NCBI RefSeq assembly: GCF_900167975.1
Contig: NZ_FUZU01000001.1
Location: 377,001 to 441,000, forward strand
DNA from: Ohtaekwangia koreensis
GTDB lineage: Bacteria; Bacteroidota; Bacteroidia; Cytophagales; Cyclobacteriaceae
Length of the DNA: 64,000 nt
Reading direction: 5' to 3'
Under the pieces are notes generated by a model. The model was not told the origin of the DNA and ran no database searches. It saw only the letters and a list, made by a program, of their open reading frames with translations. The position numbers and the translations under genes are program-made. Position 1 is the first letter of the stretch; every line of letters starts with the position of its first letter. Positions 29,880 through 47,504 of this stretch are shown piece by piece.

Positions 29880-29884
29880 CCTGG

Positions 29885-29925: not shown

Positions 29926-29944
29926 TGAGCTAACTCTGTGTTTC

Positions 29945-30632: not shown

Positions 30633-30890
30633 ACAACACGACTTTTTACTGTAACAACAGTGAAAAGAGAGAAATTTGATAGCATTTTCGTTTGTATTAG
30701 GGGGTACGGAAAACTTACGTTAACTTATGGATAATCTCACCTGCTGCCTTCTGTAAACGGACTGGCGCGAAGTTTTCTTCAATCGGATGTTGGGTTCAAT
30801 GAATAAAAAAGTATACAAGGTCAGCGAACTTATCGTCATTAAACTCATTTTCATTGCAGGTGATAAATCAGACAGTTGTCTAAGCAGGAT

Positions 30891-32387: not shown

Positions 32388-32821
32388 ATAAAAAGTTAAA
32401 CTGTATCATGCTGGTTGATGACAACCCTGATGACAATTTTTACCACGAGAGAGTGATAACAAGAAGTAATGCTGCCGACATTGTTATACCAAAGGAATCA
32501 GCATCGGATGCACTTGAATATTTAAGATCACAAAAGAATAATCACAACACCCACCCCGATCTTATTTTTCTGGACATTAACATGCCCGGCATGAACGGAT
32601 GGGATTTTCTGATGGAATACACCAAGCTGGATAAAAAATTACAAAGCCGGGCTGTTATTGTAATGCTTACAACTTCAGAGAATCCGGATGATAAGATGAA
32701 AGCAAGAGCATTGAATATCGCTGCTGACTTTAAGACAAAACCATTGACCAAAGAAATGTTGGAAAAAATTATTATCAAGCATTTTAAACAGACAATACCT
32801 GACCAGATCATCTTACCTTAG
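32384..32821 (+). CDS. Single-domain response regulator
   Basis: Receiver-only protein of 145 aa of the Rcp1-like type. It has the acidic patch (LVDDNPDDN), phospho-acceptor Asp near 63 in LIFLDINMPGMNG, the switch Thr in VIVMLTTSENPDD and the Lys in FKTKPLT. No output domain, so it acts by protein contact, for instance as a phosphorelay partner. It overlaps the kinase stop by 4 bp (ATGA), a tight translational link. Confidence 0.93.
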   Translation: MNKKLNCIMLVDDNPDDNFYHERVITRSNAADIVIPKESASDALEYLRSQKNNHNTHPDLIFLDINMPGMNGWDFLMEYTKLDKKLQSRAVIVMLTTSENPDDKMKARALNIAADFKTKPLTKEMLEKIIIKHFKQTIPDQIILP

Positions 32822-33641
32822 AGTCCCTGATATATACAATCCTTATTCGAATATATGTGTTAAGATGTATTTATTTGCGACCATGGTGGCATATAAACTG
32901 CTTAGAACAGATTCTGAAGTATGCAACGTTACGGCTATCGTATATATAAGTAAAACTATAAATGGCTCTTAGTGCTCCTTCCGTATACCAGTAGCTTTAA
33001 TGTTATAGCAATCCAGGATTTCATAATTTCTGGTACTTCTTCTGGAGATTATTCTGCTCGTGCTTTGGATTTTTCTAGTTACTAAGGATTGGGTAAAAAT
33101 TCCAGCGTTTGCTTACGCCCTTAGGTTATGTGAAGCTACTGATCAACTTTCATAATCCTGATTTATCCTAATTCTTGCTTTGCCTTTTTCTAGCAGCATC
33201 GATTACTTTTCGGCTTGTGACCTTTGGATTTTCTCACGCGAAAATCTCTTGAGCGTCAAACGATAGATGAAATACAAGTCTGTACAAAAGTTTAATGTCT
33301 TCTAAAAACGGCTCGAAATTTTACCACTCAGGTCGACTTTGAGACAATCAATTGTTCGAAAAACCTCTATATCGTATGATGTAAAGGGTTTTTTCTTTTC
33401 TTTTCTTTTCTTTTATACTAATTCATTTCATTTTATTCGATAGACATATGCCCTATTCGGTGCCCTGTTTCCCTATACTATATTTAGGGCACAGAATGTT
33501 ATGTGGTTATCTGGGTATTAAATTATTGAATCACAACTTTTGATTCTTTTGGTGTAACATGATAGCTCACGTGCCCGAGAACTGTGAGTAATCAAGGAGG
33601 TATTAAAACCTTCTTTTTAAATTACAAATCACGTAACAACT
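32822..33641. other. 820-bp region without genes
   Basis: AT-rich DNA in the island with stops in all frames. It holds a TTTTC x4 tract (33391-33410) and a weak hairpin AGGAGGT/ACCTTCT with T5 (33594-33617). No ORF, tRNA or recognisable remnant seen. Confidence 0.5.
33391..33414 (+). repeat. TTTTC pentanucleotide tract
   Basis: Four perfect TTTTC units followed by TTTT. It lies in non-coding DNA. Confidence 0.9.
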
Positions 33642-33884
33642 TCAAAAAAATATCTTATAAAAAAGATCTCCCCATTGAATATAAAATGGATAAGTCACGA
33701 TATCCCATTTAATGACACCGTTATATATGATTTTAGTTACATATATAGATTCACTATTGTCGGTATATTTCTTACTGACATAGGTTTCAATCGTGTCGAT
33801 ATAGTTGAAATCATTTTTACCCCACTGTATATATGTTGTTGTTTGCGATTGACGTCCTCCTCCCTCATCAGTATATACTTTCAT
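33642..33884 (-). CDS. Small unrecognised ORF, perhaps a gene fragment
   Basis: 80 aa from ATG 33884, rich in Tyr, Ile and Thr (TTTYIQWGKNDFNYIDTIETY). The same frame stays open upstream for another ~30 codons with protein-like composition (FPNLHAPRKFEFLQNSK) back to a stop close to the end of the next gene at 33975, but has no ATG there. It may therefore be the 3' part of a gene whose start was lost, or may start at a rare codon. No family recognised. Confidence 0.4.
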   Translation of the reverse strand: MKVYTDEGGGRQSQTTTYIQWGKNDFNYIDTIETYVSKKYTDNSESIYVTKIIYNGVIKWDIVTYPFYIQWGDLFYKIFF

Positions 33885-33974
33885 TCCATATTTTTGTTTG
33901 CTGTTTTGGAGAAATTCAAATTTTCTTGGAGCATGTAAATTTGGAAAATATACTTCCGTTTGTGCGTTTCGTTT

Positions 33975-34778
33975 TTATTTTTTCAACCCTATAAAACTCC
34001 AAAAATTAAATTTAGGTCTTTCAATTTGTTTGTTTTGTTCTTGGGACATTTTTTCCAACTCCAAATAGGATTTAATTCCAACTTTAGCTCTGTCTGCAAC
34101 TACGACACCATAATGATTCCCGACATTGGAACATATCCTTTCAAACTTGCCAAGCGAAACCATTCTTTCAATTATTCGAACTCCGTCTGCGTAGTCTTCA
34201 AAAATGTCAACTGGTAATGGTCTGTAGTTCGATGTTGACTTAATGAATTTTGAAAAGAAGTATGGATCTAGGTCACCAAATTCAAGACCGAAAACAAGAG
34301 GGACTTCTATGAGCTGTCCTGTTTCATTATTTTCAAAACCACAATGAAATCCATGAACAAAATATCTCCAGCCTTTAATTTTCCCAATTTGTCGTTTGTC
34401 ACACTTTAGCTCGTTGAACGTTTCCATTGGAAAGTCCTTATTTAACTTCAAGTCAAGTTCGTCAACCAACTTGAATAGTAATTCTTCTCCTAACTTTCGG
34501 TAATCCTTTGCACATTGCTCAAAAAAGGCTTGATTGGTTTCAATTTCTTGATCTGTTATAAGTTTGGCAATATTTATTTCGGGTTCAATTGTATGTATTC
34601 CAATCTGAAAACCCGGGAGTTCATTTTTCAATTTTTGTCCGACTGCTTCTCGTTGACTTTGAACTCCCTTTTCAAAAACAAGTTTCAATATCCGTTCCCG
34701 CGGAATTGCTTGAACTGTTTCAAGTGTCGGAATTCGTTCAACCGAACTTATTGCAATTATGTCTGTCGTTCTGTTCAA
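33975..34778 (-). CDS. Unrecognised cytosolic protein
   Basis: 267 aa with no signal peptide or membrane segment. The first half is helical and charged (IPRERILKLVFEKGVQSQRE, AFFEQCAKDYRKLGEELLFKLVDEL); the second contains a compact aromatic-rich domain (WRYFVHGFHCGFENNETGQ, FGLEFGDLDPYFFSKFIKST) that looks like a folded enzyme-like or ligand-binding domain. No known motif. AT-richer than the flanking chromosome and part of a minus-strand series of orphan genes, so probably acquired. Confidence 0.62.
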   Translation of the reverse strand: MNRTTDIIAISSVERIPTLETVQAIPRERILKLVFEKGVQSQREAVGQKLKNELPGFQIGIHTIEPEINIAKLITDQEIETNQAFFEQCAKDYRKLGEELLFKLVDELDLKLNKDFPMETFNELKCDKRQIGKIKGWRYFVHGFHCGFENNETGQLIEVPLVFGLEFGDLDPYFFSKFIKSTSNYRPLPVDIFEDYADGVRIIERMVSLGKFERICSNVGNHYGVVVADRAKVGIKSYLELEKMSQEQNKQIERPKFNFWSFIGLKK

Positions 34779-34938
34779 TGGTGTCGCTTCTTAAAATGAC
34801 GCGCAACGTTTACCTATTAGCCGTTGCGGCTTTAAGTTTAGTAAATTGTCTTACGTTACAAATATTTTGAGGTGATAAAATTTATACCTTAACCCAAACC
34901 CCGCAATGGATTATACATTTTGTTGGTAGGTGCCCCTT
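34779..34938. other. Inter-cassette-like spacer with inverted repeat
   Basis: Contains CGCAACG (34802-34808) and CGTTGCG (34822-34828), a perfect GC-rich inverted repeat in otherwise AT-rich DNA, between two orphan genes on the same strand. Compare the spacers at 35506-35662 and 36214. Confidence 0.4.
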
Positions 34939-35505
34939 TTACTCCCAATCGTTGTTGTCAGGGATAAATAAATTCTCATAAACATCATCCCAGTCCTTAT
35001 ATGTCCTTGTCGTTGGGTAGTCAGTGCCTGCCAATTTTGATTGAGACCATGTCAAATGTACTCTGGCATATTTAAAGTCAGAATCAAAAACTGCAAACAG
35101 TACATCATCATTGTCCTGTCGTCTTGCAACAGTTGTTACATCTTTTCCATAGAGAATGTGTCCACGACTAATTTCCTTTTCAAGTTGATTATTTAGTCCC
35201 TTGTCCGCGAAGTGCCAAGGTGTCAAACAAGGTTGTTTACCAGGTATTAGGTCAACGATGGTATTTTCTTTTAATCTAAATACTTCGTGGTCGTTTTTTA
35301 GTTTAACTGAATATAAATCAAGATCAAGTTCACCGTTTTCTTTTAGCTTTCTTGGAGCGTCCAAGTATTGATCAAGTTCAATATTGTCCAAGTATATCTT
35401 TTCGGTCAAAGTAATCTCTTGTCCTGAAATGATTGGTCGAACTAGTAAGTATTGTCCTTGTCCCGCGATGGATAATATTTTCTCTATTTTTAATTTTGTC
35501 GCCAT
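34939..35505 (-). CDS. Unrecognised cytosolic protein
   Basis: 188 aa, beta-rich N-terminus (KIEKILSIAGQGQYLLVRPI, GQEITLTEKIYLDNIELDQYL) and a C-terminal segment (ILYGKDVTTVARRQDNDDVLFAVFD then YARVHLTWSQSKLAGTDYP) of the sort seen in small hypothetical proteins of gene cassettes, sometimes in immunity-like proteins. No family recognised and no secretion signal. Confidence 0.6.
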   Translation of the reverse strand: MATKLKIEKILSIAGQGQYLLVRPIISGQEITLTEKIYLDNIELDQYLDAPRKLKENGELDLDLYSVKLKNDHEVFRLKENTIVDLIPGKQPCLTPWHFADKGLNNQLEKEISRGHILYGKDVTTVARRQDNDDVLFAVFDSDFKYARVHLTWSQSKLAGTDYPTTRTYKDWDDVYENLFIPDNNDWE

Positions 35506-35662
35506 TGTCCAAAACGGGTTGCCACCAACGCTTAGCTATAAGACGTGCGCGTGTAAATACCTACATCTTTGTCCCACGTTGCTGACGAAATTTAATAGCA
35601 CATGCGTTAAGAACCTACAATAAAGCATATGTATTATAGCTGTTGTTGTATGCTGGGGCGTC
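35506..35662. other. Inter-cassette-like spacer with inverted ends
   Basis: TAAGACG (35539-35545) and CGTCTTA (35659-35665) are inverted about 113 bp apart and enclose a non-coding segment with GTTGTATGCTGGGGCG (35645-35660). The similar GTTGTATATGCAGCG occurs at 36244-36258 after the next gene. Confidence 0.4.
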
Positions 35663-36040
35663 TTACTTGCTCTTCGTTTGGATTTCAATTTTTAGTTTCT
35701 CGTTTCTCTTTTCCTTTTCCAATCTGTCAGATTTGTCACTTAAGTACAAACTGTAAACACCAATAGCCAAAATTGCAAGCGCGTTGATGATCGCATCTAT
35801 TGTTTTGACAGTCGTCCAAAGTGTCTCTACTCTTGTCTCTTTAAATTTTTGAAAATGTCCACCGTCAAATGACAAAAAATAAAATCCCTTATTTGTCCGC
35901 GAAAGAATGTATTCTCTTGGAACCTCACTATTTCTGGAAGTCACCTCAGTCAACTTTACAAGCTCTTCCCTTCCGAGTTCTTCAGATAGGTAGGTAATCA
36001 ATTTTACGTCCCGTTTTAATTTGTCGGCGATGTCATACAC
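35663..36040 (-). CDS. Unrecognised membrane-anchored protein, possibly frameshifted at 5' end
   Basis: 125 aa from ATG 36040, with one membrane span (IDAIINALAILAIGVYSLYL) near residues 81-100 and a basic coiled tail (KSDRLEKEKRNEKLKIEIQTK). The reading frame is open further upstream with plausible protein (SIDKKGNIPNGSVYDIADKL) and crosses a run of six A at 36061-36066; a single-base change there would join it to the 65-codon ORF ending at 36016. No family recognised. Confidence 0.5.
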   Translation of the reverse strand: MYDIADKLKRDVKLITYLSEELGREELVKLTEVTSRNSEVPREYILSRTNKGFYFLSFDGGHFQKFKETRVETLWTTVKTIDAIINALAILAIGVYSLYLSDKSDRLEKEKRNEKLKIEIQTKSK

Positions 36041-36213
36041 CGACCCATTTGGGATATTTCCTTTTTTGTCAATACTCTTACAAGCTTATTATTAGCGCGG
36101 AGCAAAGGGTGATCTAAGAATGTGCAAAGGTACTTATTGCAATATTCCGCGTTATGTTCGATTTGAAATAATGCCTTCTCAACTAGTGACAACGGATTAT
36201 CAATCGGGATCAA
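36016..36213 (-). CDS. Short ORF, possible 5' part of the 35663 gene
   Basis: 65 aa (MIPIDNPLSLVEKALFQIEH, then EYCNKYLCTFLDHPLLRANN). Up to RVLTKK it reads as plausible helical protein; past the A6 run at 36061 it overlaps the downstream ORF in another frame and its tail (MGRCMTSPTN) is unlikely to be real. It is either the start of one gene broken by a frameshift, or a sequencing artefact of the homopolymer. Confidence 0.35.
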   Translation of the reverse strand: MIPIDNPLSLVEKALFQIEHNAEYCNKYLCTFLDHPLLRANNKLVRVLTKKEISQMGRCMTSPTN

Positions 36214-36408
36214 GTCACTTTTACCCTTGTTGGGTGTTGTAAAGTTGTATATGCAGCGAAGAAGTTAACTTTTGTTTCAATTAATGTGTCATCATGGGTA
36301 ATTTTATCGATCATAGTTTTTAGACATTCTGATAAATATTTCGTCACTTGTTAATGTGATAGCTACCCTGTCCATAAAAATGCACTGTAACGTTTATGCT
36401 AAAAAAAA
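36214..36408. other. Right edge of the accessory region, no gene seen
   Basis: AT-rich, contains GTTGTATATGCAGCG at 36244 resembling the spacer at 35645. No ORF of note. The boundary between island and chromosome probably lies here, before the terminator at 36409. Confidence 0.35.
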
Positions 36409-36437
36409 TACTTCTGAAGTATAACACTTCAGAGGTA
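36400..36437 (-). terminator. Terminator of the 36555-38918 operon
   Basis: TACTTCTGAAGT (36409-36420) and ACTTCAGAGGTA (36426-36437) form a 12-bp stem with one wobble; on the minus strand it is followed by eight T. It lies 118 bp after the operon's last stop. Confidence 0.85.
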
Positions 36438-36554
36438 TAAATGCAATTCAAAAATTTCCTTATAAAATACCGGTACCCAGCAACGCTCCTAAGAGCCCAT
36501 CTTTGAAGACATTGCTGAGACCGGAGGATGAAGAGAAGCTATGCTTGTGTTAAT

Positions 36555-37901
36555 TCAAAACCGTGATTTTTTCTGGATGGCATACTTAAGTCCGAACTGC
36601 GGAACTACTCTGGTGTCATCGTTGCCTTGAAGAAATTTTTGTCCGCCTACCGCTAACTCAAGCCATAAGCCTTCGTTGATCTTCATTTCTCCACCTATAG
36701 TATAGCGTATATATTCGCTTTTGTCTGTAGTCTCGCCGTTGATGGTAGCCTGACTGTATAGAAATTCTGCGGATAATCTTTTATCAGCTTTGCCAAGCAG
36801 CAACCTTCCGCCAGTAGAAAACTCCCACTTCAGCGGCATGGATTTATCTTTGTAGTTAATATAGCTTGCCTGGTATATAACTTGTGAACTTTTGGCAAGT
36901 GTTGAGTTACTATTAGCAAGACCAGGAATGCGTCCGGCAATGCCACCGAAGATACGCCAGTTGAGAAGTGATAGATCTTTGATGGTGTTTTCAGCAGAGT
37001 TATACTTGGACCCTGCCTTTAATTGAATAACCAGGCGATTCCAATTCTCTTCGATAAAAATTTTCTTTTGCCGCTTTAATTCTTCACTGAAATTTTCGGC
37101 GAACTCCTCCTCTTCTGCCTGCTCTGTAAATGTGAGCTTGGCGTTTTGGACAATCAACATTGACAATGCATTGCTTTGAGCACTATCAAGATTGATGTTG
37201 AAAGTGCCGAGCTTTTGCAGTACGGTATCTTTCATAACGAGAGCATACAGTTGATTGTCGGTTGAATCATAGCGAAGGAGTCTGCTTCTATATCCACCGC
37301 CAAAGTATTGCAGTATTGCTACTTTTGTTTGTGATGATAATCTGGAGGTAGGAGTCAGTGAATTTAGAAATTGATTTACAGATTGCAGGTGTTTGTTTCG
37401 CTGACCTGCAAGTGACATCTGGTTAGCTATACTATCTTTGTTTGCCAGGTAGTCTGCAAAGAAATTTTGTAAAGCTATATTTGCCACAGGATCGGTCCTG
37501 TCAATCGGTGTCCAGTTTATACCCCACGCTGCGAGTAAATTAGAGGAGTCTCCCTGTGCCGTTCCTATACTGATCTGTAAATTCTTCAGAGATTTATTCT
37601 TCTCCCAAAAGGAGCGTACTTTTAAAGCCTTTGCCAGTATACGATACGGTGCAATTTCCATTGCCAATCCTGGTTTCAAATTTCCATCCTGGTCAACATA
37701 ATTTTGAATGCCAACCGCCAACTCCTTTACATTCCCCGGACGTACAACATCATTGGAATTTATATCCAGTATAGAAAATGCAGTTATATCGGGTACGGAG
37801 AAATCGACATAGTAATCGTCAATAGTGATAGAATCGGGATTCTGTGCGTATAGAGAGGCTCCTGCAAGTATACCTATACAGATGAGAATAATCTTTTTCA
37901 T
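36555..37901 (-). CDS. Unrecognised exported protein, probable outer-membrane barrel
   Basis: 448 aa with signal peptide MKKIILICIGILAGASLYAQ. The C-terminal third has alternating strands and ends in aromatic/basic residues (LPLKWEFSTGGRLLLGKADKR pattern, YTIGGEMKINEGLWLELAVG, VPQFGLKYAIQKKSRF), as in outer-membrane barrels. Residues ~265-300 form an acidic coiled segment (TEQAEEEEFAENFSEELKRQ). No family recognised. It is the last gene of a three-gene minus-strand operon (12 bp and 24 bp spacings) that is divergent from the C11 peptidase block. Confidence 0.72.
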   Translation of the reverse strand: MKKIILICIGILAGASLYAQNPDSITIDDYYVDFSVPDITAFSILDINSNDVVRPGNVKELAVGIQNYVDQDGNLKPGLAMEIAPYRILAKALKVRSFWEKNKSLKNLQISIGTAQGDSSNLLAAWGINWTPIDRTDPVANIALQNFFADYLANKDSIANQMSLAGQRNKHLQSVNQFLNSLTPTSRLSSQTKVAILQYFGGGYRSRLLRYDSTDNQLYALVMKDTVLQKLGTFNINLDSAQSNALSMLIVQNAKLTFTEQAEEEEFAENFSEELKRQKKIFIEENWNRLVIQLKAGSKYNSAENTIKDLSLLNWRIFGGIAGRIPGLANSNSTLAKSSQVIYQASYINYKDKSMPLKWEFSTGGRLLLGKADKRLSAEFLYSQATINGETTDKSEYIRYTIGGEMKINEGLWLELAVGGQKFLQGNDDTRVVPQFGLKYAIQKKSRF

Positions 37902-37913
37902 ATATATAGGAGT

Positions 37914-38264
37914 TTAATTTGTGGCTTCTAAAAGTGCATCGTCAGAAATTTTTACTGCCGCTTCTGCCGGGACATCGATCTGTCGTGTCCATATATTCAA
38001 AACTTTATCATCCTGCGTCCAGGTTATCGTAACAGTAGCGGTCAACGTGCTTGTCGAGATATTGCCAAGTCTTATATCCCAGGAGTTAATGTCGTCATCA
38101 AGATTGACAGGGAGCCCCAATATATGGTTAGAGTTACCACCGGCCGAACTTTTGGATTTGAAGGTGAGATCACCCACATATATATAGCTCCATACTGGTG
38201 CTTCTTCGACTTGTATATCAATTGATACAGGTTTGTCGGTTTTACTGAATCGAATGAGTTCCAT
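37914..38264 (-). CDS. Small beta-sandwich-like protein of unknown function
   Basis: 116 aa, no signal peptide. Strongly alternating strand pattern (PVSIDIQVEEAPVWSYIYVG, TSTLTATVTITWTQDDKVLN) suggests a single beta sandwich. Its size is close to the two small proteins at 39150 and 41859, but I see no convincing sequence match to them. It is located between the two membrane proteins of the operon. Function unknown. Confidence 0.65.
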   Translation of the reverse strand: MELIRFSKTDKPVSIDIQVEEAPVWSYIYVGDLTFKSKSSAGGNSNHILGLPVNLDDDINSWDIRLGNISTSTLTATVTITWTQDDKVLNIWTRQIDVPAEAAVKISDDALLEATN

Positions 38265-38288
38265 AACGTTTGATGAGTTTAGTGTATT

Positions 38289-38918
38289 TTATTTCTTTTC
38301 GTTTATAACTTTTGTTGCATATGGTACTATACCTATACCCAGCGATGCCAGTATAGGCCACAATTCTTCGAACTTAGGCACGGGTAGCCCTTTGATCGCG
38401 AAGTACATATAGTAAGAGGTGATGCAGATCGCAATGATCACCGCAGAGAGACCGGAGAAGAAAGCGATCAACCGACTGCTGCTTCTTTTTAATACGGGTT
38501 GCTCGGGTGTTTTTCCGCCGGCTATAGCAACGGCTTGAAGCTGTTCTACCTGGTCATCCGACATGTCTACAGAAAGAGCATCCGCTATTTTATACTTGTC
38601 CTTCTTCAGCCAGCGCAGGAAATACCAGAGTAAGAGTATAAATAGGATCACCGGCAGTAGGATCATTACCCATTGGATGAAGTCGGGTTTTGCTATGCAT
38701 TCCACACAAGGCGGTACAGGAGGACGAGCAATGATTACACGCTTTATTGAATCGGATTTTTTGATCAAGGTCTCCAGGGATTTGTTTCCAGTGGTATTCA
38801 ACTTAACAAGCTTACTTAAGCGATTCACGATCACCGTATCGGTTCCGGGAGATGACTGCGCGTGCGATGTATATACACCTCCCAAGAATAAAATCATGAT
38901 GCAGATAATTGTTTTCAT
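38289..38918 (-). CDS. Unrecognised membrane protein
   Basis: 209 aa. Signal peptide MKTIICIMILFLGGVYTSHA, then a short extracytoplasmic part with a proline and cysteine cluster (RPPVPPCVECIAKPD), a membrane span (WVMILLPVILFILLLWYFL, ~83-101), a cytoplasmic part (KYKIADALSVDMSDDQVEQL), and two further hydrophobic segments (AFFSGLSAVIIAICITSYYMY and LWPILASLGIGIVPYA). First gene of the operon; divergent from the 39150 gene with 231 bp between starts. Function unknown. Confidence 0.7.
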   Translation of the reverse strand: MKTIICIMILFLGGVYTSHAQSSPGTDTVIVNRLSKLVKLNTTGNKSLETLIKKSDSIKRVIIARPPVPPCVECIAKPDFIQWVMILLPVILFILLLWYFLRWLKKDKYKIADALSVDMSDDQVEQLQAVAIAGGKTPEQPVLKRSSSRLIAFFSGLSAVIIAICITSYYMYFAIKGLPVPKFEELWPILASLGIGIVPYATKVINEKK

Positions 38919-39149: not shown

Positions 39150-39503
39150 ATGCAAAGAAGATTTAAACTCGGTGACAAAATTGCTTCGATCGAGCAGACA
39201 CCATCGTTGAGGTTCTCTAATGATGGAACCCAGATGATTTTTACCTTTCCGGTAATTTCCACAGAATTACCCGACTCAGAATCAGAAGAGCCGCAAAACA
39301 GTAAGCGTCACACGCATCGTGATCTTGTCGAGCTTGCAGGTGGATCAGTTTTCAGCAATGGCCTGAAGGTTTCTCTTTCCAGTGTGAACAGAGACGAAGC
39401 AGTATTAACGATGAGCATGAAAGTAAATTCAAAAGTGCCAGGTACAGGAACGGCCTTTGCCAAGATTCTTAATGGCAGCAACGGTAACAGCCATCATTCA
39501 TAG
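39150..39503 (+). CDS. Small protein of the C11-peptidase pair, copy 1
   Basis: 117 aa, cytosolic by sequence. Beta-rich; the C-terminal half (GGSVFSNGLKVSLSSVNRDE, then LTMSMKVNSKVPGTGTAF) aligns with the 41859 protein (GANIFNEARVSIGLTPIASDD, then TFIVKAKLGTKVPGTGSSS), sharing K-VPGTG at the same distance from the end. No known family. Its 3' end faces the C11 peptidase gene at 39599 across one terminator, exactly as copy 2 does. It could be a substrate, inhibitor or partner of the peptidase; this is inference from context. Confidence 0.7.
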   Translation: MQRRFKLGDKIASIEQTPSLRFSNDGTQMIFTFPVISTELPDSESEEPQNSKRHTHRDLVELAGGSVFSNGLKVSLSSVNRDEAVLTMSMKVNSKVPGTGTAFAKILNGSNGNSHHS

Positions 39504-39530
39504 GTCCCCTATCCTCTCTATAAATGAAAG

Positions 39531-39562
39531 AAGCTATCTCATTTGAGGTAGCTTTCTTTTTT
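39531..39562 (+). terminator. Terminator between convergent small-protein and peptidase genes
   Basis: AAGCTATCTC (39531-39540) and GAGGTAGCTT (39545-39554) with one wobble, followed by a T-rich run. It lies between the facing stops of the 39150 and 39599 genes. Confidence 0.85.
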
Positions 39563-39598
39563 TACTGACAACGGTTTAAGGTATATATTAAGATATGT

Positions 39599-40990
39599 TT
39601 ATGAAAGCGCGACAGCTTCTTCTTCACCTGTCTCACTTTCTTCTTCTACAGGCTCCGTAAGTATATAGCGCCGAATGAACACGTCCCACCCGAAGCGTTT
39701 TGTGAATTCAGTGGGCGAGAGCGATGATTCAGTCATGAAGTTATCGAGGAATGATGTTTTGTAGTCTTCCTGTAATCGGGGAAAGTAAATGGAAAATCCA
39801 GAAGGTTTTATAGCAGCGCTGGTGCCGTCATCATCAAAGTCTTTCCCAACAAAAGATTCTATAACAACGTTATCCAGCAATGTTTTGAATGTATTAAAGA
39901 GACTATCCGTGAATACTTCGGGTATTTCTTCATAAAGACGTGTGATAAGATTTCGGAAGTCGAGGAGACAGAACATTGGTATACCCGGAGATATATAGTC
40001 ACATTTGTTTGCAGCTGCAAGTATTTTTTCACGATGGGTAGGTAAAGCTTTTGTTAATATTTTCGCGAGCTTATCGATCATTCGCGCTAACGAAGGGTAC
40101 CACGAAAGATCATTTGCAAATAAAGCTACTTCATCGCGTGAGGCAGAAATAGCTGTATTCGTTTCTTCAGCAAATGAGTTTACTATGTTTTTTGAAAGCG
40201 CTTCGGGCAATATATCCGGATCGTTTCCTATACCTTCGAGAATAACCTTGTAATTGAATGTGTCCTTAAAGAACATCACCGTTTCAAAAGTAATAAGGTA
40301 ATCTACTGTATCACTCAACTCATATCCGGTATCAAAGAAATGCAAAAAGCAATTGGCCATAACAAGCACATCGATCTTCTGACCATCAAACGCCCATTGA
40401 ATAGCCTGCTTCAATTCGGTCATCGTCAATATTGGTAGTACGTCATCCTCCTCTGCCGGCACCGCTATTCGGTTTTGCCTTTCTAAGTTCAATTGTTTTT
40501 GCTGGCGGAAATGAAATGTTTTTAGATTGAGATTTTCTGGAGGATTCCTCGCTGCTCTATTTATACCCGGAAAGATGCCAAAGGGCTGGCCATGATCCCA
40601 GGTGAATAATATATACTTCTCTGCCATAAAAGATGAAAGAACTTTTTCTTTGAAGAAACCGGTGATGTCTTGTTCTTTGTCAATTCTAAAGTCGCGGCTT
40701 TCATGGATATACTGAAATATACATCCACCCGTCGGGTTACGTTCAAGGCTGCAGAATAGTGTAGTCCATCCGGGTTCCTTCATAGAAACATCACCTGGCC
40801 CAAGTACTCTCGTAATTGGAAGTATATCCGGGGCTATCTCTGCTTTTATATTGATACAGAGCACTACGGCTATATCTCCCGTTTTTTCAACAGAGGTTAG
40901 CTGGTCGAGTAGTTGGTTAAGCTCTCGAATGTTGTCGGCTGCACCTTTAATTAGAAAGATGGCAGTCCATTTGTGTTTTTTCTGTGACAT
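39599..40990 (-). CDS. Clostripain-like (C11) cysteine peptidase, copy 1
   Basis: 463-aa protein of peptidase family C11 (clan CD, the caspase/clostripain fold). The catalytic His is H133 in YILFTWDHGQPFGIF and the catalytic Cys is C214 in VMANCFLHFFDTGYEL, in the standard order and strand contexts (the usual family form is D-A-C-L-M). The C-terminal GFSIYFPR and WDVFIRRYI match the end of the family. There is no signal peptide, unlike typical secreted clostripains: MSQKKHKWTAIFLIKG leads straight into strand 1. The insert between His and Cys (~145-185) could hold a self-cleavage site. Paralogous with 42227-43570. Confidence 0.82.
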   Translation of the reverse strand: MSQKKHKWTAIFLIKGAADNIRELNQLLDQLTSVEKTGDIAVVLCINIKAEIAPDILPITRVLGPGDVSMKEPGWTTLFCSLERNPTGGCIFQYIHESRDFRIDKEQDITGFFKEKVLSSFMAEKYILFTWDHGQPFGIFPGINRAARNPPENLNLKTFHFRQQKQLNLERQNRIAVPAEEDDVLPILTMTELKQAIQWAFDGQKIDVLVMANCFLHFFDTGYELSDTVDYLITFETVMFFKDTFNYKVILEGIGNDPDILPEALSKNIVNSFAEETNTAISASRDEVALFANDLSWYPSLARMIDKLAKILTKALPTHREKILAAANKCDYISPGIPMFCLLDFRNLITRLYEEIPEVFTDSLFNTFKTLLDNVVIESFVGKDFDDDGTSAAIKPSGFSIYFPRLQEDYKTSFLDNFMTESSLSPTEFTKRFGWDVFIRRYILTEPVEEESETGEEEAVALS

Positions 40991-41194
40991 AACTGTAGGG
41001 TTTTAGAGTATAAGTAAAGTTGCCGACAATCATTATACATCACAATGTGAAAACGTCCGGAGTGATAACGGGAAAATTCCCGTTATCTGTAAAATCTTAA
41101 AACCGGAATATTGTACAGTTGACGCGGATGATGTATATTCCATACATATTCCGATAGTTACTGGTAACGTTTGGCACTACAACCTTTATGAGAT

Positions 41195-41839
41195 ATGATG
41201 AAAGTGATGATCGGGATCGCTGATGACCAACGGTTATTTTTAAAATCGCTGGTAACCCTTGTTAATACCTTCAGCCAGTTTACTGTTGTACTGGATGCGC
41301 AGAATGGTAGTGATCTTTTAAATAAGCTGGAACGAGCCGAGCAGGAACCTAATATCATTTTACTGGATGTAAACATGCCGGGTATGGATGGTATACATGC
41401 TGCGCAGGAAATTTCACAGCGATATCCAGCTATCAAGCTCGTAGCATTATCGATGAAGGATGATGATACTACCATTATCAGCATGTTCAAAGCCGGATGC
41501 TGTGCATATCTGGTAAAAGATATACATCCCGATGAACTCGAGAAGGCATTGGCTGAAGTATATAGCAAAGGATTTTACAATGCCGATGCTATGAATATAA
41601 ATTTCCGGAGATTGCTGGCGCATGGTAACAAGAAAAATGAGATCAGGATCACCGAGCGAGAAATGACATTTTTGAAATTCGCATGTACGGACATGACCTA
41701 TAAACAGATTGCCTCTGAGATGAACCTTGCCGAACGCACCATCGATGGATATCGTGAAGCACTGTTCGAAAAACTGAATGTGCAAAGCAGAGTGGGAATG
41801 GCGATGGAGGCGATTCGGAGGAAGTTGGTGGAGATATAG
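41195..41839 (+). CDS. LuxR-type response regulator in the C11 block
   Basis: NarL/FixJ response regulator of 214 aa. Receiver domain with D12-D13 region (IADDQRLF), phospho-acceptor D57 in IILLDVNMPGMDG, and K in YLVKDIH; LuxR helix-turn-helix near 150-212 (ITEREMTFLKFACTDMTYKQIASEMNLAERTIDGYREALFEKL). It is 19 bp upstream of the second small protein gene on the same strand, suggesting co-transcription, and is probably phosphorylated by the sensor kinase encoded at 43593. Confidence 0.93.
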   Translation: MMKVMIGIADDQRLFLKSLVTLVNTFSQFTVVLDAQNGSDLLNKLERAEQEPNIILLDVNMPGMDGIHAAQEISQRYPAIKLVALSMKDDDTTIISMFKAGCCAYLVKDIHPDELEKALAEVYSKGFYNADAMNINFRRLLAHGNKKNEIRITEREMTFLKFACTDMTYKQIASEMNLAERTIDGYREALFEKLNVQSRVGMAMEAIRRKLVEI

Positions 41840-41858
41840 TATACTAACAATTAAATTT

Positions 41859-42218
41859 ATGGATAATGTAAGAATTGATCTCTCAAGCAATCTTGTGAAT
41901 GCATCGGTTGATCCAACGATTAGAATTGAACCAGATATGGCTGGTTATAGGGTAGTTGTTTCTTTTGGAATATTAGCTACCAAAGTCACAGCTCCTCCTA
42001 CATCTGGCCAAGTAAAAAGTCAGCGAGAGACTGAACTAGGTGCTAACATCTTTAATGAGGCGCGCGTTTCAATAGGGCTTACGCCTATAGCTAGTGATGA
42101 CGCAGGTTCTATATTGACGTTTATTGTAAAAGCAAAACTAGGCACGAAGGTTCCTGGTACCGGATCCTCATCAATAACAGTTTTTGAAATATCCGATTTG
42201 GACGGATTATTGAAATGA
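41859..42218 (+). CDS. Small protein of the C11-peptidase pair, copy 2
   Basis: 119 aa from ATG 41859 (MDNVRIDLSSNLVNASVD); the frame is open from 41778 but that would overlap the response regulator. Beta-rich, no signal peptide or membrane segment. Paralogue of the 39150 protein by the shared C-terminal pattern ending KLGTKVPGTGSSS. Stop-to-stop distance to the convergent C11 gene is 8 bp. A weak hairpin (CAGGC/GCCTG) lies at the junction. Function unknown; context suggests a partner of the adjoining peptidase. Confidence 0.68.
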   Translation: MDNVRIDLSSNLVNASVDPTIRIEPDMAGYRVVVSFGILATKVTAPPTSGQVKSQRETELGANIFNEARVSIGLTPIASDDAGSILTFIVKAKLGTKVPGTGSSSITVFEISDLDGLLK

Positions 42219-42226
42219 TTCAGGCG

Positions 42227-43570
42227 TTATTTTGAGCCTGGTGTATTTGGCTTCATGAACTCCATAACAAAGTTAAACCAAAGTCGTTCTTTGGCGAAAC
42301 TTGTATTCTCGAAGAATTTCAAATGACGCCTGGAGACAATTACACCATTTAATTGAATTGGAAAGAAAATGGAGAACCCATATGGAAATTTTCTTTTGGC
42401 AACGTCATGATAATAGACTTTACCTATATATCTGGCAACGATTACTCTTTTCATTAGGAGCCATAGCCGAGTTCGAGTAAGAAACTGCCAATATCGTCCA
42501 ATAGTTAGTTGGAGATTTTTTAAGAGGTTGAAGAAGTCGACAATATTTAGGCTATCATTAAGTTCTGGAGAATTAAGTCTGGCCATTATAAGTTCGTTTT
42601 TGTTGTGGCTTAATTCTCTTGACAATGCATGTACCAATCGGTCTATGAGCCTGGCGATTAATGAGTAGTAACTAAGATTAGTAGCAAAAATAGCTGTTAC
42701 AGATTTTGCTATACTGCCAATTTCCGCGTCTGTATATATTTTAGTTTCGAATGAATTTACAATATGTTTAGCAAGTTGTTTGGTAGGTATATCTGGATTG
42801 CTAAAGAGTTTTTTGAAAAAGAACTGGTAGTTATATCCATTAAAGAACATATATGTTTCCGGTGCAATTAGATATTTAACATTTCTTCGCAATGCATACC
42901 CGGTATCAAATAATTGCATATAGCAATTCATCATGACGACTAACTCTATTTTTGTGTTTTTAAAGTTTTGATTAAGAGCTGCAGCCAATTCATCCATAGT
43001 GAGTATTTTTTGTTCTTCTTCGTTATTCAGATTGGTTTCTGCTGTTATTTTTTTTGGTGGCAAAGAAGTTGATTTGATAGCTAGCTGTGGATATTTTTTG
43101 AATAGGTTATCACTTAGAGGATGTAGATCTGTCTGAGGGTTTCCATTAGGTAAATTGTTAAATATGCCATAAGAGCTTCCATGATCCCATGTGAATATTA
43201 TATAACGATGGCTATTTGTATTGACTAGAAATTTCTCCAAATCCCGCTGTAGAGTAATATCAAAGGTGTCATCAGACTGGATAAATTTAAGGTCATTTAG
43301 AAATTCAGAATTTTCGGCGCTCTTCTCAAAACCGTAAAACAAAGTTGTCGGAGTAAGATTTTTATTGGGGTTTTGAATAAGGGAAGGGTCTCCCGACTCG
43401 ATAGCTTCTCGATTTTCTTTGCCTACGCTCATGCATAGGAGTATGCACACCTCATCGTTCATTTTTATAGAACGAAGTTCGTTCAACATCTCAATAAGCT
43501 CAACTACACTTAGATCAGTTGCTTTAATAACAAAGAAAACAGTCCACTTTCGTTTCTTTTGCGACTTCAT
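42227..43570 (-). CDS. Clostripain-like (C11) cysteine peptidase, copy 2
   Basis: 447-aa family C11 peptidase, paralogous over its length with 39599-40990 (KKRKWTVFFVIKATDLSVVE against KKHKWTAIFLIKGAADN at the start). Catalytic His H130 (YIIFTWDHGSSYGIF) and Cys C216 (VVMMNCYMQLFDTGYAL) are both present, and the end has GFSIFFPI. No signal peptide. A Lys-rich insert (LPPKKITAETNLNNEEEQK, ~170-188) lies between the two catalytic residues. It is divergent from the sensor kinase gene with only 22 bp between starts. AT-richer than copy 1. Confidence 0.82.
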   Translation of the reverse strand: MKSQKKRKWTVFFVIKATDLSVVELIEMLNELRSIKMNDEVCILLCMSVGKENREAIESGDPSLIQNPNKNLTPTTLFYGFEKSAENSEFLNDLKFIQSDDTFDITLQRDLEKFLVNTNSHRYIIFTWDHGSSYGIFNNLPNGNPQTDLHPLSDNLFKKYPQLAIKSTSLPPKKITAETNLNNEEEQKILTMDELAAALNQNFKNTKIELVVMMNCYMQLFDTGYALRRNVKYLIAPETYMFFNGYNYQFFFKKLFSNPDIPTKQLAKHIVNSFETKIYTDAEIGSIAKSVTAIFATNLSYYSLIARLIDRLVHALSRELSHNKNELIMARLNSPELNDSLNIVDFFNLLKNLQLTIGRYWQFLTRTRLWLLMKRVIVARYIGKVYYHDVAKRKFPYGFSIFFPIQLNGVIVSRRHLKFFENTSFAKERLWFNFVMEFMKPNTPGSK

Positions 43571-43592
43571 TTTTGTAGTTTGATATTTTGTT

Positions 43593-46500
43593 GTGAAAAG
43601 CTTTACCTACTATATACTTCTAACGGTTATACTCTGTCCAACGATGGCTTCCTTGGGACAGGAGACTAAATTTGTCACGCCTATTAAATATACCCAAAAC
43701 GAAGGACTCTCCAGTTACTATATAACAAAAATAATCAAGGACTCTTATGGCTTTCTCTGGATCGGTACACAGGAAGGTCTCAATCTGTTTGACGGAAATC
43801 GATTTCAGACTTTTACAAAGCGCTCACCGGCCAAACAGAAACTGAACGGAAGTTTTATCTCTGATCTGCTGGAAGATAAAAAGCGAAATTGTATCTGGGT
43901 GCTTTTGTCGTATGGGGAAGTTTGTGCCATCGACCTGCAAACTCGTACTGTTACCCGTAGGGTTTTGCTCGATACGAGCAATCCCGATAACGTAAAGTGG
44001 AAGCGATGTCTTGCGTTGAAAGGTGACACACTGTGGATAGCAGGACTTGACTTTGCATACGCTTACCAGGTCTCCACGAACAAAATATTACCCATTGATA
44101 TTCGGGCGAAATGCGCTGTCGGTAAGGCAGAACTCAATATCTCGATGATTCATTTTGATCAGCATCAAAGCATGATCATCTGCGCTGACGGTTATGGTAT
44201 AATTATACTCGATAAAAATCTTCGTCACCTCCATACGTTCCGGGCGGATGAATTGAATGCTCCGGGCACGTATACCAAACTTCGGTTTTGGGACGCTGTT
44301 ATGCTGAAGCATATACTATATATCGCCAGCAGTACAGGATTAAAGATAGTAGATACAGCTCCTGCGCAAATGGCATTAGTGCCGGCTGATGATATTCCAC
44401 TGGTGCGTGAGGGTGAGCTGTTGAGCATTGCTGCATCTTCCGATTCTTCTTTGATGTTTTCAACGTCAGCAGGTGTTTATGAATATAGCCTGTCGGCAGG
44501 AAGTATTGTTTCGTTGCGGGATAACAATCCGGCTAATAATTTATTTACCACGACTTATGATATATACTATGATCGGCAACTACACCAGGCTTGGATCGGT
44601 ACCTTGGCGGGTATTGCTTCTTTTCCTACGCGTGTGGTACATTTCAAAACATTTTCTGAGTATGGCGCCAACGTAAAACTTAAGCATTTGTTTTCTGTAC
44701 TGCCCGTGTCGGAGAATATAATTTATGCAGGTGATGAGAATGGCATATACTATATCGATACAAAGACAGGTGAGATTACGCAGATTGATGCATCCGGTAG
44801 TAACCTGATGTTGTTTCAGGATCAGGCACGTCATGTATTCGTTTCGAATAAAACCGGCTTTCATCTTATTGATGGTAAAAGTCTGAGGCCTGCACACTCG
44901 GTTTTTCCTTCCATGAAATTGCTGAACTCCGATCATCTTAGCTGCGGCATTCAGTATAATGATTCGTTGGTGTTGTTCGGTAGTATTATACAGAAAGGAC
45001 TTACCATCTGGAATACGCGTACGGGTAAATTGCAGGTATACCATCGGCAATCGACTGACCATACTATAGCAGGACTTACCATTATTAATTATCTCTATAA
45101 GACCCGCGCAGGCGATGTGATGATCCTTACGGAAAAATCAATTATCGCTTTTAATCCGCTCATTGGCAAATATACCACGCACACCATTCGCGACAATCTG
45201 ACGCAGGAGGTGATTAGTAATTTTATGGATATGTGTGAAACAGATGATCGCTTTTACATTGCTACGTATGGTGACGGACTGATTGAAACGGATAAGCAAC
45301 TTCATGTAAAGAAAATTATTCGCTCGGAAGATGGTTTGAACAATACCTGTATATATCGTGTATTTCCCTTTCAGAATAAAGCTATACTGGCAACGACTAA
45401 CGATGGGCTTTCGCTGATACACCTGAACCCGTTAAAGATCAAGAATTATTTTCAAACCGATGGACTCAATACAAATGCTTTTGAACAACTCTGCGGCTAC
45501 CAGGACGACCATCGTATTATTACCGGAGGTGTTGATGGCTTTACAATTATTGATCCTTCACGACTTCCGAGTAACGCACGACCTCCCGATCTATATCTTT
45601 GGAATCTGAAGGTAAATACAAAATCCGGTGTGCTCGATACCTGTCACATTGCGATGAAAGCAATGCGTATACCGACTGATGTGCTGCAGACTACTGTATC
45701 CTTTTCGGCTTTAAACTATAGCAATCCAAAGGCGGTTCGGTATGCTTATAAGATCAATGAACTTAATAACGACTGGATAGATTTAGGGAAACAGAATTTT
45801 GTAGACTTGATCGGATTCTCCCCGGGAGATTATACTTTGGAAGTACGTGCGGCAAACGAAGATGGTATATGGAGTGACGTGCCGCTGTCGCTTAGTCTCA
45901 TCTATATACCGAAGTGGTATCAGACGAATATTTTTAAAATTGCTATTGCGCTGTCAGGGGCTATGTTTATTTATGGGTTGCTGCGTTATCGCATCGATCA
46001 GCTTAGAAAACAGCAGGAGATACGCAAGCAGATCGGCAGCGACCTGCACGATGATATAGGTAGCGTGCTGAATACACTGAAGATCTTTACACACTTGGCC
46101 AAGCGCGAACCGGAAAATAAATCTCACCTCGATCAGATTGAAGAATCGATAACACAAGCCACTACTGGTCTTCGTGATATGATCTGGGTATTGGAGGAAC
46201 CGGAAGACACGATCTTTGAATTAACCGAGCGTATCAAAAAGTTTGCATTGCCGGTATGTATCGTTAACAACATTAAATTCAATACGAACATTCAGTCTGA
46301 CAACAAGACAAGGAATTTACTCAAAACTGAAAAAAGAAATCTCCTTCTCATTGCAAAAGAATCAATCAACAATAGTATCAAATATTCACAATGCAAAAAT
46401 ATTTCAGTTTCTATAGTTCAATTCAACCAGGAACTTAGTATTACCATAAGCGATGATGGTGTTGGATTCAAGATGGAAGATGTGATCTATGGAAAAGGCT

Positions 46501-46631
46501 TAAAGAATATTCAATACCGGGCCGGGCAGATAAATTTTTCCTGTCAAATGGACGCCACGTTAAATGGCGGTACAACCATTCATCTGCAAAAAGGAAAGAA
46601 AACATCCAGCTCGTTGGACACTTCCATTTGA
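43593..46631 (+). CDS. Two-component sensor kinase with periplasmic propeller
   Basis: 1012 aa, start GTG 43593, signal-like N-terminus MKSFTYYILLTVILCPTMASLGQ. The periplasmic part has two-component regulator propeller repeats (IIKDSYGFLWIGTQEGLNLFDG is the classic blade) up to ~680, then a Y_Y_Y domain (YAYKINELNNDWIDLGKQNF). A single span near 780-798 (FKIAIALSGAMFIYGLL) leads to HisKA_3 with phospho-acceptor near 818 (SDLHDDIGSVLNTLKIF) and HATPase (SDDGVGF, GKGLKNI). Unlike hybrid systems it has no receiver, so the partner is probably the 41195 regulator. It senses an unknown extracellular signal. Confidence 0.92.
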   Translation: MKSFTYYILLTVILCPTMASLGQETKFVTPIKYTQNEGLSSYYITKIIKDSYGFLWIGTQEGLNLFDGNRFQTFTKRSPAKQKLNGSFISDLLEDKKRNCIWVLLSYGEVCAIDLQTRTVTRRVLLDTSNPDNVKWKRCLALKGDTLWIAGLDFAYAYQVSTNKILPIDIRAKCAVGKAELNISMIHFDQHQSMIICADGYGIIILDKNLRHLHTFRADELNAPGTYTKLRFWDAVMLKHILYIASSTGLKIVDTAPAQMALVPADDIPLVREGELLSIAASSDSSLMFSTSAGVYEYSLSAGSIVSLRDNNPANNLFTTTYDIYYDRQLHQAWIGTLAGIASFPTRVVHFKTFSEYGANVKLKHLFSVLPVSENIIYAGDENGIYYIDTKTGEITQIDASGSNLMLFQDQARHVFVSNKTGFHLIDGKSLRPAHSVFPSMKLLNSDHLSCGIQYNDSLVLFGSIIQKGLTIWNTRTGKLQVYHRQSTDHTIAGLTIINYLYKTRAGDVMILTEKSIIAFNPLIGKYTTHTIRDNLTQEVISNFMDMCETDDRFYIATYGDGLIETDKQLHVKKIIRSEDGLNNTCIYRVFPFQNKAILATTNDGLSLIHLNPLKIKNYFQTDGLNTNAFEQLCGYQDDHRIITGGVDGFTIIDPSRLPSNARPPDLYLWNLKVNTKSGVLDTCHIAMKAMRIPTDVLQTTVSFSALNYSNPKAVRYAYKINELNNDWIDLGKQNFVDLIGFSPGDYTLEVRAANEDGIWSDVPLSLSLIYIPKWYQTNIFKIAIALSGAMFIYGLLRYRIDQLRKQQEIRKQIGSDLHDDIGSVLNTLKIFTHLAKREPENKSHLDQIEESITQATTGLRDMIWVLEEPEDTIFELTERIKKFALPVCIVNNIKFNTNIQSDNKTRNLLKTEKRNLLLIAKESINNSIKYSQCKNISVSIVQFNQELSITISDDGVGFKMEDVIYGKGLKNIQYRAGQINFSCQMDATLNGGTTIHLQKGKKTSSSLDTSI

Positions 46632-46862
46632 AAAAAGTGGTTCATCTAATTCACAATCACTCGCTTGAATTGGATTCGTCAGTCATTTGTACGTATCATT
46701 AATTTAATATTGAAGGAACGTTGTGTTAACCCGGAACAGTAAACTCACATTTTATATATAGCGAACGTTGAGTCGATATCTCCTCGGGTTATACCGTTCA
46801 CCACCATTCATTTGTATCCCAACAACACAAACTATATATTACATAAATTAAATGTTATTACT

Positions 46863-47282
46863 ATGAAAAGAACAGCAAGTGCACATTGGAGTGGTGACCT
46901 CAAAGCAGGTCAGGGAAACATAACAACCCAAAGCACAACCCTCAACAAAACACAATATTCATTCAACACCCGCTTTGCAGATGGTGTTGGTACTAATCCG
47001 GAAGAACTGATAGGAGCAGCCCATGCCGGTTGTTTTACAATGGCACTAAGTGCTGCTTTGATGCAGGCAGGCTTCACAGCCGGAGACCTGGACACAAAAG
47101 CGACCGTTGAATTTGATACAAACGCTTTAAAGATCACCGGTATAACACTTGACTTGGTGGCTACACCGATCGCGAATGTATCAGCGGAGCAATTTAAAAC
47201 TATTGCTACTGCAGCAAAAGAGAACTGCCCTATATCCAAGGCACTCGCGAGTGTACCCATTACGCTTAATGTAAGCTATTAA
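46863..47282 (+). CDS. OsmC family peroxidase
   Basis: Thiol-dependent peroxidase of 139 aa acting on organic hydroperoxides. ATG 46863 (MKRTASAHWSGDLKAGQG) fits the family N-terminus better than the ATG at 46812. Both redox cysteines are present: C57 in AAHAGCFTMALS and C122 in KENCPISKAL. Length is normal for the OsmC/Ohr family; NPEELIGAAHAGC points to the OsmC branch. Monocistronic with its own terminator. Confidence 0.93.
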   Translation: MKRTASAHWSGDLKAGQGNITTQSTTLNKTQYSFNTRFADGVGTNPEELIGAAHAGCFTMALSAALMQAGFTAGDLDTKATVEFDTNALKITGITLDLVATPIANVSAEQFKTIATAAKENCPISKALASVPITLNVSY

Positions 47283-47301
47283 TGTCTTAGAAACGAAACT
47301 G

Positions 47302-47328
47302 GGGTGGCTTTGAGCCGCCCTTTTTTTA
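47302..47328 (+). terminator. Terminator after the OsmC gene
   Basis: GGGTGGCT and AGCCGCCC with a short TTG loop and one wobble, followed by seven T. Confidence 0.88.
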
Positions 47329-47504
47329 TATCAGCATTTCCCCTCTTTTAGACTGTATCGATATATATCATATATAGAGCACAGAAAAACGCTGATCAAT
47401 TTAAAGATACCTTTCCTATACCGTCAGTTGCGGGTTGTCAATCTCATTTTGCACGGTCGTATGTCATCATTATTTTCCGTTGGTTAATATATGACATCAC
47501 GATT

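What the first reader, a model, noticed from the sequence alone, without database searches (positions are those of the whole stretch)
39150..46631. Candidate new system: two small-protein/C11-peptidase pairs with a two-component sensor
Seen directly: two convergent gene pairs (39150/39599 and 41859/42227) have the same layout. In each a ~118-aa protein with a shared K-VPGTG end faces a clostripain-type peptidase with intact His and Cys and no signal peptide. A LuxR-type response regulator (41195) and a propeller sensor kinase (43593) flank the second pair. Known: C11 peptidases belong to clan CD with caspases, and are usually secreted; cytosolic members paired with a small protein suggest regulated intracellular proteolysis. 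Inferred: the small protein is a substrate, inhibitor or activator, and the sensor/regulator controls expression. I know of no described system with this composition.
Basis: partly seen in the sequence, partly recalled or inferred. Interest (0 to 1): 0.78.

Follow-up and report, generated by a model that had tools for sequence, protein, structure and literature searches.

The report
Swappable protease-partner pair beside sensor genes
Some soil bacteria carry a protein-cutting enzyme together with a private small partner protein, exchanged between strains as one unit and set inside the genes of a sensor system, a combination that looks undescribed and may be a controlled self-cutting or conflict device.

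Summary
In detail: two convergent small-protein/C11-peptidase pairs, a LuxR-type regulator and a propeller sensor kinase. The layout regulator, small ORF, opposed C11, kinase recurs in 9 loci (window included). The finding was understated. In the nearest relative, about 95% identical on both sides, the second small gene and its peptidase are replaced together (35% and 39% protein identity), while regulator (99%) and kinase sensor (96%) stay; a second such contrast exists. Over 12 pairs, small protein and peptidase diverge in step (Mantel r 0.97). The small protein is therefore probably a private partner of its peptidase, most likely an inhibitor, and probably not the kinase's ligand. The peptidases keep C11 fold and His/Cys, but in 14 of 14 aligned the Asp behind Arg/Lys preference is Met, Ala or Ser. 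The locus is patchy (7 of 295 family genomes). Limits: four distant loci have a different small ORF in the slot, one pair lacks sensor genes, and no function was tested. Best reading: a two-component-linked, exchangeable protease-partner cassette that resembles known protease-partner conflict modules without belonging to any tested. Interest 0.6.

The parts
39150..39503 (+). small protein A, 117 aa, C-terminal KVPGTG, partner of C11 A
   Evidence: omega 0.15 against L020
39530..39555 (.). hairpin with T-run between the convergent genes of pair A (terminator-like)
   Evidence: such hits are as frequent in shuffles (8 found, 7.5 expected)
39599..40990 (-). C11-type peptidase A, 463 aa; catalytic His133 and Cys214, Ala in place of the S1 Asp
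41195..41839 (+). NarL/LuxR-type response regulator; 99.1% identical to that of L020
41859..42218 (+). small protein B, 119 aa, C-terminal KVPGTG, 19 bp after the regulator
42227..43570 (-). C11-type peptidase B, 447 aa; Met in place of the S1 Asp
41838..43520 (.). exchange unit: only three short weak blastn matches to relative L020 (one of 172 nt at 67% within the slot, two under 50 nt to slot A), while both flanks are 94-95% identical; the right edge lies 50 nt inside C11 B
43593..46631 (+). membrane sensor kinase (propeller, Y_Y_Y, HisKA_3, HATPase); start 22 bp from the C11 B start, head to head
38289..38918 (-). membrane protein, first gene of a three-gene companion module
37914..38264 (-). 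116-aa predicted beta protein (by eye), second gene of the companion module
36555..37901 (-). 448-aa protein, exported and outer-membrane-like by eye, third gene of the companion module

Best explanation
The locus is a two-component regulatory unit (regulator plus membrane sensor kinase) that carries one or two exchangeable protease-partner pairs. The peptidase is a probably cytosolic, divergent C11 enzyme of the caspase clan. The small beta-rich protein is its private partner, most likely an inhibitor that holds the peptidase in check: the small gene reads with the regulator and kinase, while the peptidase reads against them. Shown by computation: conserved layout, joint exchange of the pair, co-divergence, intact catalytic dyad, loss of the Arg/Lys S1 Asp, purifying selection. 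Inferred: that the partner inhibits rather than is cut; that the sensor sets the balance between partner and peptidase, possibly because regulator, small gene and kinase form a non-contiguous operon whose transcript runs antisense to the peptidase gene; that the released peptidase acts on the cell's own proteins.
For: Layout RR, small ORF, opposed C11, kinase in 9 of 9 loci with the pair between RR and kinase (window, L020, L021, L022, L025, L026, L033, L034, L091), RR-to-small gap 19-89 bp, C11 and kinase starts within about 35 bp or overlapping. Joint exchange: window vs L020 flanks 95.4% and 94.4% identical with only short weak matches between (edges), RR 99.1%, kinase sensor 96.3%, pair B 35% (small) and 39% (C11). 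Second contrast L021 vs L022: RR 96.2%, sensor 85.3%, pair B 32% and 32%. Mantel r 0.966 over 12 pairs, 0 of 10,000 permutations. K and P of a C-terminal K-x-P-[GY]-[TS] motif in 12 of 12, at the edge between folded part and disordered tail in the model. C11 fold, Foldseek E 2.4e-14 to a solved C11. The Dawidia soli locus L023 lacks pair B and keeps about 30 nt like the C11 B start between RR and kinase (by eye).
Against: No result separates inhibitor from substrate or chaperone. In L091/L075 and L033/L034 the small ORF is not detectably the same family (for L033/L034 judged by eye), so a single conserved inhibitor does not hold across the wider group. One pair (L024) has no sensor genes nearby. 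No Bacteroidota promoter was found at the pair, and promoter and terminator hits are no more frequent than in shuffles. Convergent orientation is unusual for toxin-antitoxin or effector-immunity pairs (recalled). Co-divergence alone is expected of any linked genes; the joint exchange carries the weight, and it could also be differential loss of old copies.
Confidence: 0.42

Rival explanations
1. The small protein is the peptidase's dedicated substrate: on activation the C11 cuts near the K-x-P-G-T-G motif and releases the tail or activates the small domain, as in gated nuclease-protease immune pairs.
For: Motif at the edge of a disordered tail; co-divergence and joint exchange fit a dedicated substrate equally well. 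Proteolytic activation of a partner is established for nuclease-protease pairs (PMC12799240, abstract and start of the introduction read).
Against: The Asp that gives known C11 enzymes Arg/Lys preference is absent in 14 of 14, so cutting after the motif Lys is not predicted. No Pfam domain was recognised in the small protein. It ends at or just after the motif in L023, L024 and L026, leaving almost no tail to release.
Confidence: 0.25
2. Effector and immunity pair: the C11 is delivered into rival cells and the small protein protects the producer, as in polymorphic toxin systems.
For: Joint exchange of the pair, two divergent alleles in one genome. Looser RR relatives sit near Tle1-like lipase, amidase, papain and M4 genes. 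Caspase-like domains are reported as toxin domains of polymorphic toxins, Bacteroidetes included (PMC3482391, passages read). A weak contractile-sheath match exists in 7 of 7 genus genomes.
Against: The T6SS sheath family VipB (PF05943) is found in 0 of 7 genus genomes. Of the 7 sheath matches only one is over the family cut-off, and it lies in a genome without C11. No trafficking domain was recognised on the C11. A sensor kinase between pairs is not typical (recalled).
Confidence: 0.15
3. Peptide signalling of the agr type: the C11 cuts the small protein, the fragment is exported and sensed by the kinase.
For: Peptidase, small protein, kinase and regulator in one locus.
Against: The kinase sensor (96.3%) does not change when the small protein is replaced (35% identity); in agr-like systems the sensor co-varies (recalled). 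The small proteins have no signal peptide by eye.
Confidence: 0.06
4. The small protein is a folding or targeting adaptor for the C11, not a regulator of activity.
For: Pairing and co-divergence.
Against: No direct evidence; the opposite-strand arrangement does not suggest co-production.
Confidence: 0.12

Closest known systems
Peptidase family C11 (clostripain, PmC11, iotapain; PF03415)
   Same: Fold, catalytic His and Cys, variable linker after the His where known members are auto-cleaved.
   Different: S1 Asp177 replaced by Met/Ala/Ser with Asn at -1 in 14 of 14; private small partner; two-component genes. No signal peptide by eye, but some other C11 lack one too.
Trypco-trypsin pairs of VMAP conflict systems (PMC7159879, passages read)
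   Same: A small co-occurring protein next to a peptidase.
   Different: Different peptidase class, no relevant Pfam match of the small protein. I noticed no MoxR/vWA/VMAP genes among the neighbours but did not search for them. The held text of that paper does not contain 'clostripain' or 'two-component'.
Caspase-nuclease (canu) and other nuclease-protease immune pairs (PMC12799240, abstract and start of the introduction read)
   Same: Protease with a dedicated partner gene that moves with it; in canu the protease is caspase-family.
   Different: Partner is not a recognisable nuclease; a membrane histidine kinase lies in the locus.
agr-type peptide pheromone loci (recalled)
   Same: Peptidase, small protein, kinase, regulator.
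   Different: Sensor does not co-vary with the small protein.

Membership tests
Peptidase_C11 (PF03415) | Pfam match and C11 fold | tested here: met
   14 of 14 members of A7 (14 of the 16 C11 genes read) match PF03415 at E<=0.001; the model's 10 matches at E<=0.001 are C11/clostripain entries or the B. fragilis cysteine protease 5dyn
Peptidase_C11 (PF03415) | Catalytic His and Cys | tested here: met
   His and Cys in 14 of 14
Arg/Lys-specific C11 peptidases (clostripain/PmC11 type) | Asp two residues before the catalytic Cys (PmC11 Asp177) | tested here: not met
   Met 9, Ala 3, Ser 2 of 14; Asp in 3 of 3 control C11; role of Asp177 from PMC4850288 (passages)
Arg/Lys-specific C11 peptidases (clostripain/PmC11 type) | Activation by self-cleavage in the linker | not testable with these tools
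   linker 133-184 is low-confidence in the model
Trypco-type co-occurring domains | Match to a described co-occurring domain | tested here: not met
   12 small proteins scanned against Pfam at E<=1: one match in all, to an archaeal virus capsid family (E 0.026) in one member; that the library holds the Trypco models is recalled, not checked
Effector-immunity (polymorphic toxin) pair | Pair exchanged as a unit | tested here: met
Effector-immunity (polymorphic toxin) pair | Delivery out of the producing cell | tested here: inconclusive
   VipB in 0 of 7 genomes; weak sheath matches in 7 of 7, one over cut-off
agr-type peptide signalling | Sensor kinase co-varies with the peptide gene | tested here: not met
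   sensor 96.3% with small B 35% between window and L020
Known anti-phage defence systems | Match to PADLOC models | tested here: not met
   0 of 7 window proteins given (pairs A and B and the companion module; RR and kinase not given) match at E<=0.01

The most novel reading that the evidence does not exclude
A polymorphic, signal-gated proteolysis system: a sensor kinase and regulator hold an exchangeable slot for caspase-clan peptidase plus private antidote, wired as a non-contiguous operon so that making the antidote and sensor opposes the peptidase. It would be one version of a wider Bacteroidota theme in which related regulators or the companion membrane module sit beside different lytic enzymes (caspase, papain, M4, amidase, lysozyme, patatin).
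Probability: 0.27. Interest if true: 0.82.

Novelty: new variant of a known kind. Interest (0 to 1): 0.6.

Why it matters
Caspase-clan peptidases with dedicated partners are central to cell suicide and immunity in animals and increasingly in bacteria. Here is a bacterial case where the partner and protease are exchanged together between close relatives while the sensor stays fixed. That makes cognate specificity directly testable with two alleles in one genome and a third in its nearest relative. It would also give a C11 subfamily with a predicted non-basic cutting preference.

Tried and rejected
Considered and set aside: (1) peptide pheromone model, because the sensor does not co-vary. (2) Cleavage after the motif Lys as the default reading, because the S1 Asp is absent. 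(3) Phage or plasmid origin: the C11 A protein finds nothing in plasmid or phage records and the C11 profile nothing in viral contigs. (4) Membership in Trypco or in listed defence systems. (5) A T6SS effector.

Led nowhere: Foldseek of the small-protein model (best E 0.71; the five models range from pLDDT 55 to 78); Bacteroidota promoter pattern, recalled (3 found in the window, 2.45 expected, none near the pair; its second half alone 70 found, 64 expected); sigma-70 and terminator scan no better than shuffles; profile comparison of the A1 small family with the L091/L075 small proteins; paper searches for 'peptidase C11' with 'histidine kinase' and 'response regulator' (0 papers) and for 'C11 peptidase' with 'small protein', 'inhibitor' and 'Bacteroidetes' (0 papers); PMC9296434 on Dawidia holds none of five words on predation or lysis.
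Full report
What is there. The window is part of contig C6 of a 7.24 Mb genome. Relatives found with its C11 are named in one collection as Dawidia soli, Chryseosolibacter histidini and several MAGs. NCBI places these two in Cytophagales, Chryseotaleaceae. The two C11 genes are the only PF03415 matches in the genome.

Distribution. With C11 A as query, 7 of 295 genomes of the family match, own genome included. With the C11 profile, 5 of 7 genomes of the genus match, and 2 of 341 genomes of the order sample, own included. The other is G1171, of another family (L091). In 395 genomes of the phylum sample, 7 match: the own genome and six of one other genus. Of those six I read three (L080-L082, ORFs of roughly 4-13 kb of each); they are C11 genes with 'DAC' and I saw no such regulator, kinase or small partner beside them. 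A scan of the collection of 84,980 species genomes by peptide pattern gave 8 loci, including two distant ones, L033 and L034.

Layout. I read 11 loci besides the window that carry this C11 type (L020-L026, L033, L034, L091 and the fragment L075), 16 C11 genes in all with the window's two. With the pair between regulator and kinase the order is regulator, small ORF, opposed C11, kinase in 9 of 9 loci (window, L020, L021, L022, L025, L026, L033, L034, L091). They come from three genera of one family, a second family of the order, and two more distant MAGs. In L033 the kinase is split into two ORFs. In L023 the pair lies upstream of adjacent regulator and kinase genes. L024, a second locus of the same Dawidia genome, has a pair and a subtilase gene but no regulator or kinase. 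L075 is a short MAG contig with regulator, small gene, broken C11 and a kinase piece in an odd orientation. A second pair (A) sits upstream of the regulator in the window, L020, L021 and L022. Start codons of C11 and kinase are head to head within about 35 bp or overlap (the L026 kinase start is uncertain), so no ordinary promoter fits between them. Small and C11 stop codons are 0-19 bp apart in the B-type pairs of the genus and in L024-L026.

Exchange of the pair. Between the window and L020, 36547-41837 is 95.4% and 43521-47500 is 94.4% identical. In between blastn finds only short weak matches: one of 172 nt at 67% within slot B and two of under 50 nt to slot A. At base level the left edge is the regulator's stop codon and the right edge lies 50 nt inside C11 B, so about the first 17 codons are shared. 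The small proteins of slot B are 35% and the peptidases 39% identical; regulator 99.1%, kinase sensor part 96.3%, kinase part 98.3%. L021 against L022 gives a second contrast: regulator 96.2%, sensor 85.3%, pair A 82% and 77%, pair B 32% and 32%. L020 B and L021 B are 66% and 69% identical, so alleles do not follow the host genomes. In L023, without pair B, the short stretch between regulator and kinase keeps about 30 nt like the start of C11 B (matched by eye), as if a pair had been lost or never filled. Over the 12 pairs with the A1-type small protein, small and C11 identity matrices correlate at r 0.966, 0 of 10,000 permutations. Linked genes would correlate anyway; it is the joint exchange against constant flanks that argues for private partners. 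Differential loss of old copies would give the same pattern with the same meaning.

The small protein. Small A and B match no Pfam or NCBIfam family at E<=1; of 12 family members one has a weak Pfam match (E 0.026, virus capsid); the profile finds no PDB chain better than E 0.97. The model is beta-rich with a disordered tail (mean pLDDT 77.9, five models 55-78) and matches no solved fold (best E 0.71). K and P of K-x-P-[GY]-[TS] near the end are invariant in 12 of 12. In 196 family genomes it was found in 4 genomes that carry the C11 and, weakly, in one other (E 0.0058). It is not universal: L091 and L075 have another small protein (26% identical to each other; unrelated to A1 by profile), and L033 and L034 have Lys-rich ORFs of 66 and 58 aa, which may or may not be genes.

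The peptidase. The model (pLDDT 75.6, pTM 0.80) matches ten chains at E<=0.001: C11/clostripain entries and the B. fragilis cysteine protease 5dyn. His and Cys are kept in 14 of 14 (of 16 genes read, two not aligned there), Asn precedes the Cys in 14 of 14. The S1 Asp of PmC11, described as conserved throughout the family and the likely basis of Arg/Lys preference (PMC4850288, passages read), is Met, Ala or Ser in 14 of 14; 3 of 3 control C11 proteins keep it. So the cutting preference is predicted to differ.

Selection. Against L020 omega is 0.15 for small A, 0.12 for C11 A, 0.03 for the regulator, 0.06 for the kinase: all are maintained.

How it probably works. The partner most likely restrains its own peptidase; regulator, partner and kinase read one way, the peptidase the other. 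Transcription of the sensor set would therefore both make the partner and run antisense to the peptidase gene. The idea of non-contiguous operons is published (search listing only). I have no expression data and found no promoter at the pair. The pheromone model is disfavoured because the sensor ignores the change of the small protein. The substrate model and the delivered-effector model remain open.

Wider setting. A three-gene module (38918 down to 36555: membrane protein, beta protein, outer-membrane-like protein) lies beside the locus in the window, L020, L021 and L022, and a diverged version in L091 (beta 27%, third protein 21% identical). L034 has a similar row of genes whose homology is doubtful. 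A search for the third gene in 241 order genomes found 8, own included. Around the seven others (about 3-17 kb of each listed) I saw a caspase-domain gene with kinase and regulator (L104), patatin and phage-type lysozyme (L102), patatin, M19, amidase and M15 (L105), an astacin-like gene (L103), an EEP-type nuclease (L100), and kinase and regulator genes without a hydrolase that I recognised (L101, L106). L033 is flanked by two caspase-domain genes and a CHAT gene. These hints of a lytic or conflict context are associations, not tests.

Literature. Searches in the held library: 'clostripain' or 'trypco' (20 of 263 papers listed), 'trypco' (2 papers), 'peptidase C11' with 'histidine kinase' and 'response regulator' (0 papers), two or more of clostripain, conflict system, defense system, caspase-like (15 of 266 listed), 'C11 peptidase' with 'small protein', 'inhibitor', 'Bacteroidetes' (0 papers). 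In the listings and passages seen, I met none that describes this composition; most subscription journals are not held.

On rereading the calls I corrected the call number of the neighbourhood listing (17, not the failed 16), the wording on weak matches inside the exchanged slot, the description of trimmed rows, and the capped literature lists.

Noticed in passing
window 36555-38918 (-): Three-gene module (membrane, beta, outer-membrane-like proteins, no Pfam family over cut-off) whose third gene in other Cytophagales sits beside caspase-domain, patatin, lysozyme, amidase, M15, astacin-like or nuclease genes.
   Followed up: partly
L073 3879-14837 and L074 8444-16998: Relatives of the regulator with another kinase type, near small proteins holding GCP-x-PPC close to their ends and papain (L074), M4 (L073), amidase (L074) and Tle1-like lipase (both) genes.
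   Followed up: partly
L033 2264-4919 and 14133-16976: Two caspase-domain genes and a CHAT gene flank a distant C11 locus in a MAG labelled Williamsia whose cassette genes look Bacteroidota-like.
   Followed up: partly
L021 14561-15376, L022 6708-7523: 271-aa protein with an HEVLE stretch, placed before the three-gene module; the L022 copy has no Pfam match over cut-off.
   Followed up: no
L024 6149-7711: Subtilase gene, signal-less by eye, directly beside a small/C11 pair that lacks sensor genes.
   Followed up: no
window 29805-36500: tRNA-Pro, then an ORF at 29945 that reads like a recombinase end by eye (no Pfam match) and lower GC to about 36 kb; similarity to L020 begins only at 36547.
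   Followed up: no
G000:C6:3170488-3170742 and 6 other genus genomes: Weak contractile-sheath (PF04984) matches in 7 of 7 genus genomes, only one over cut-off and that in a genome without C11; perhaps an injection-type particle unrelated to this locus.
   Followed up: no
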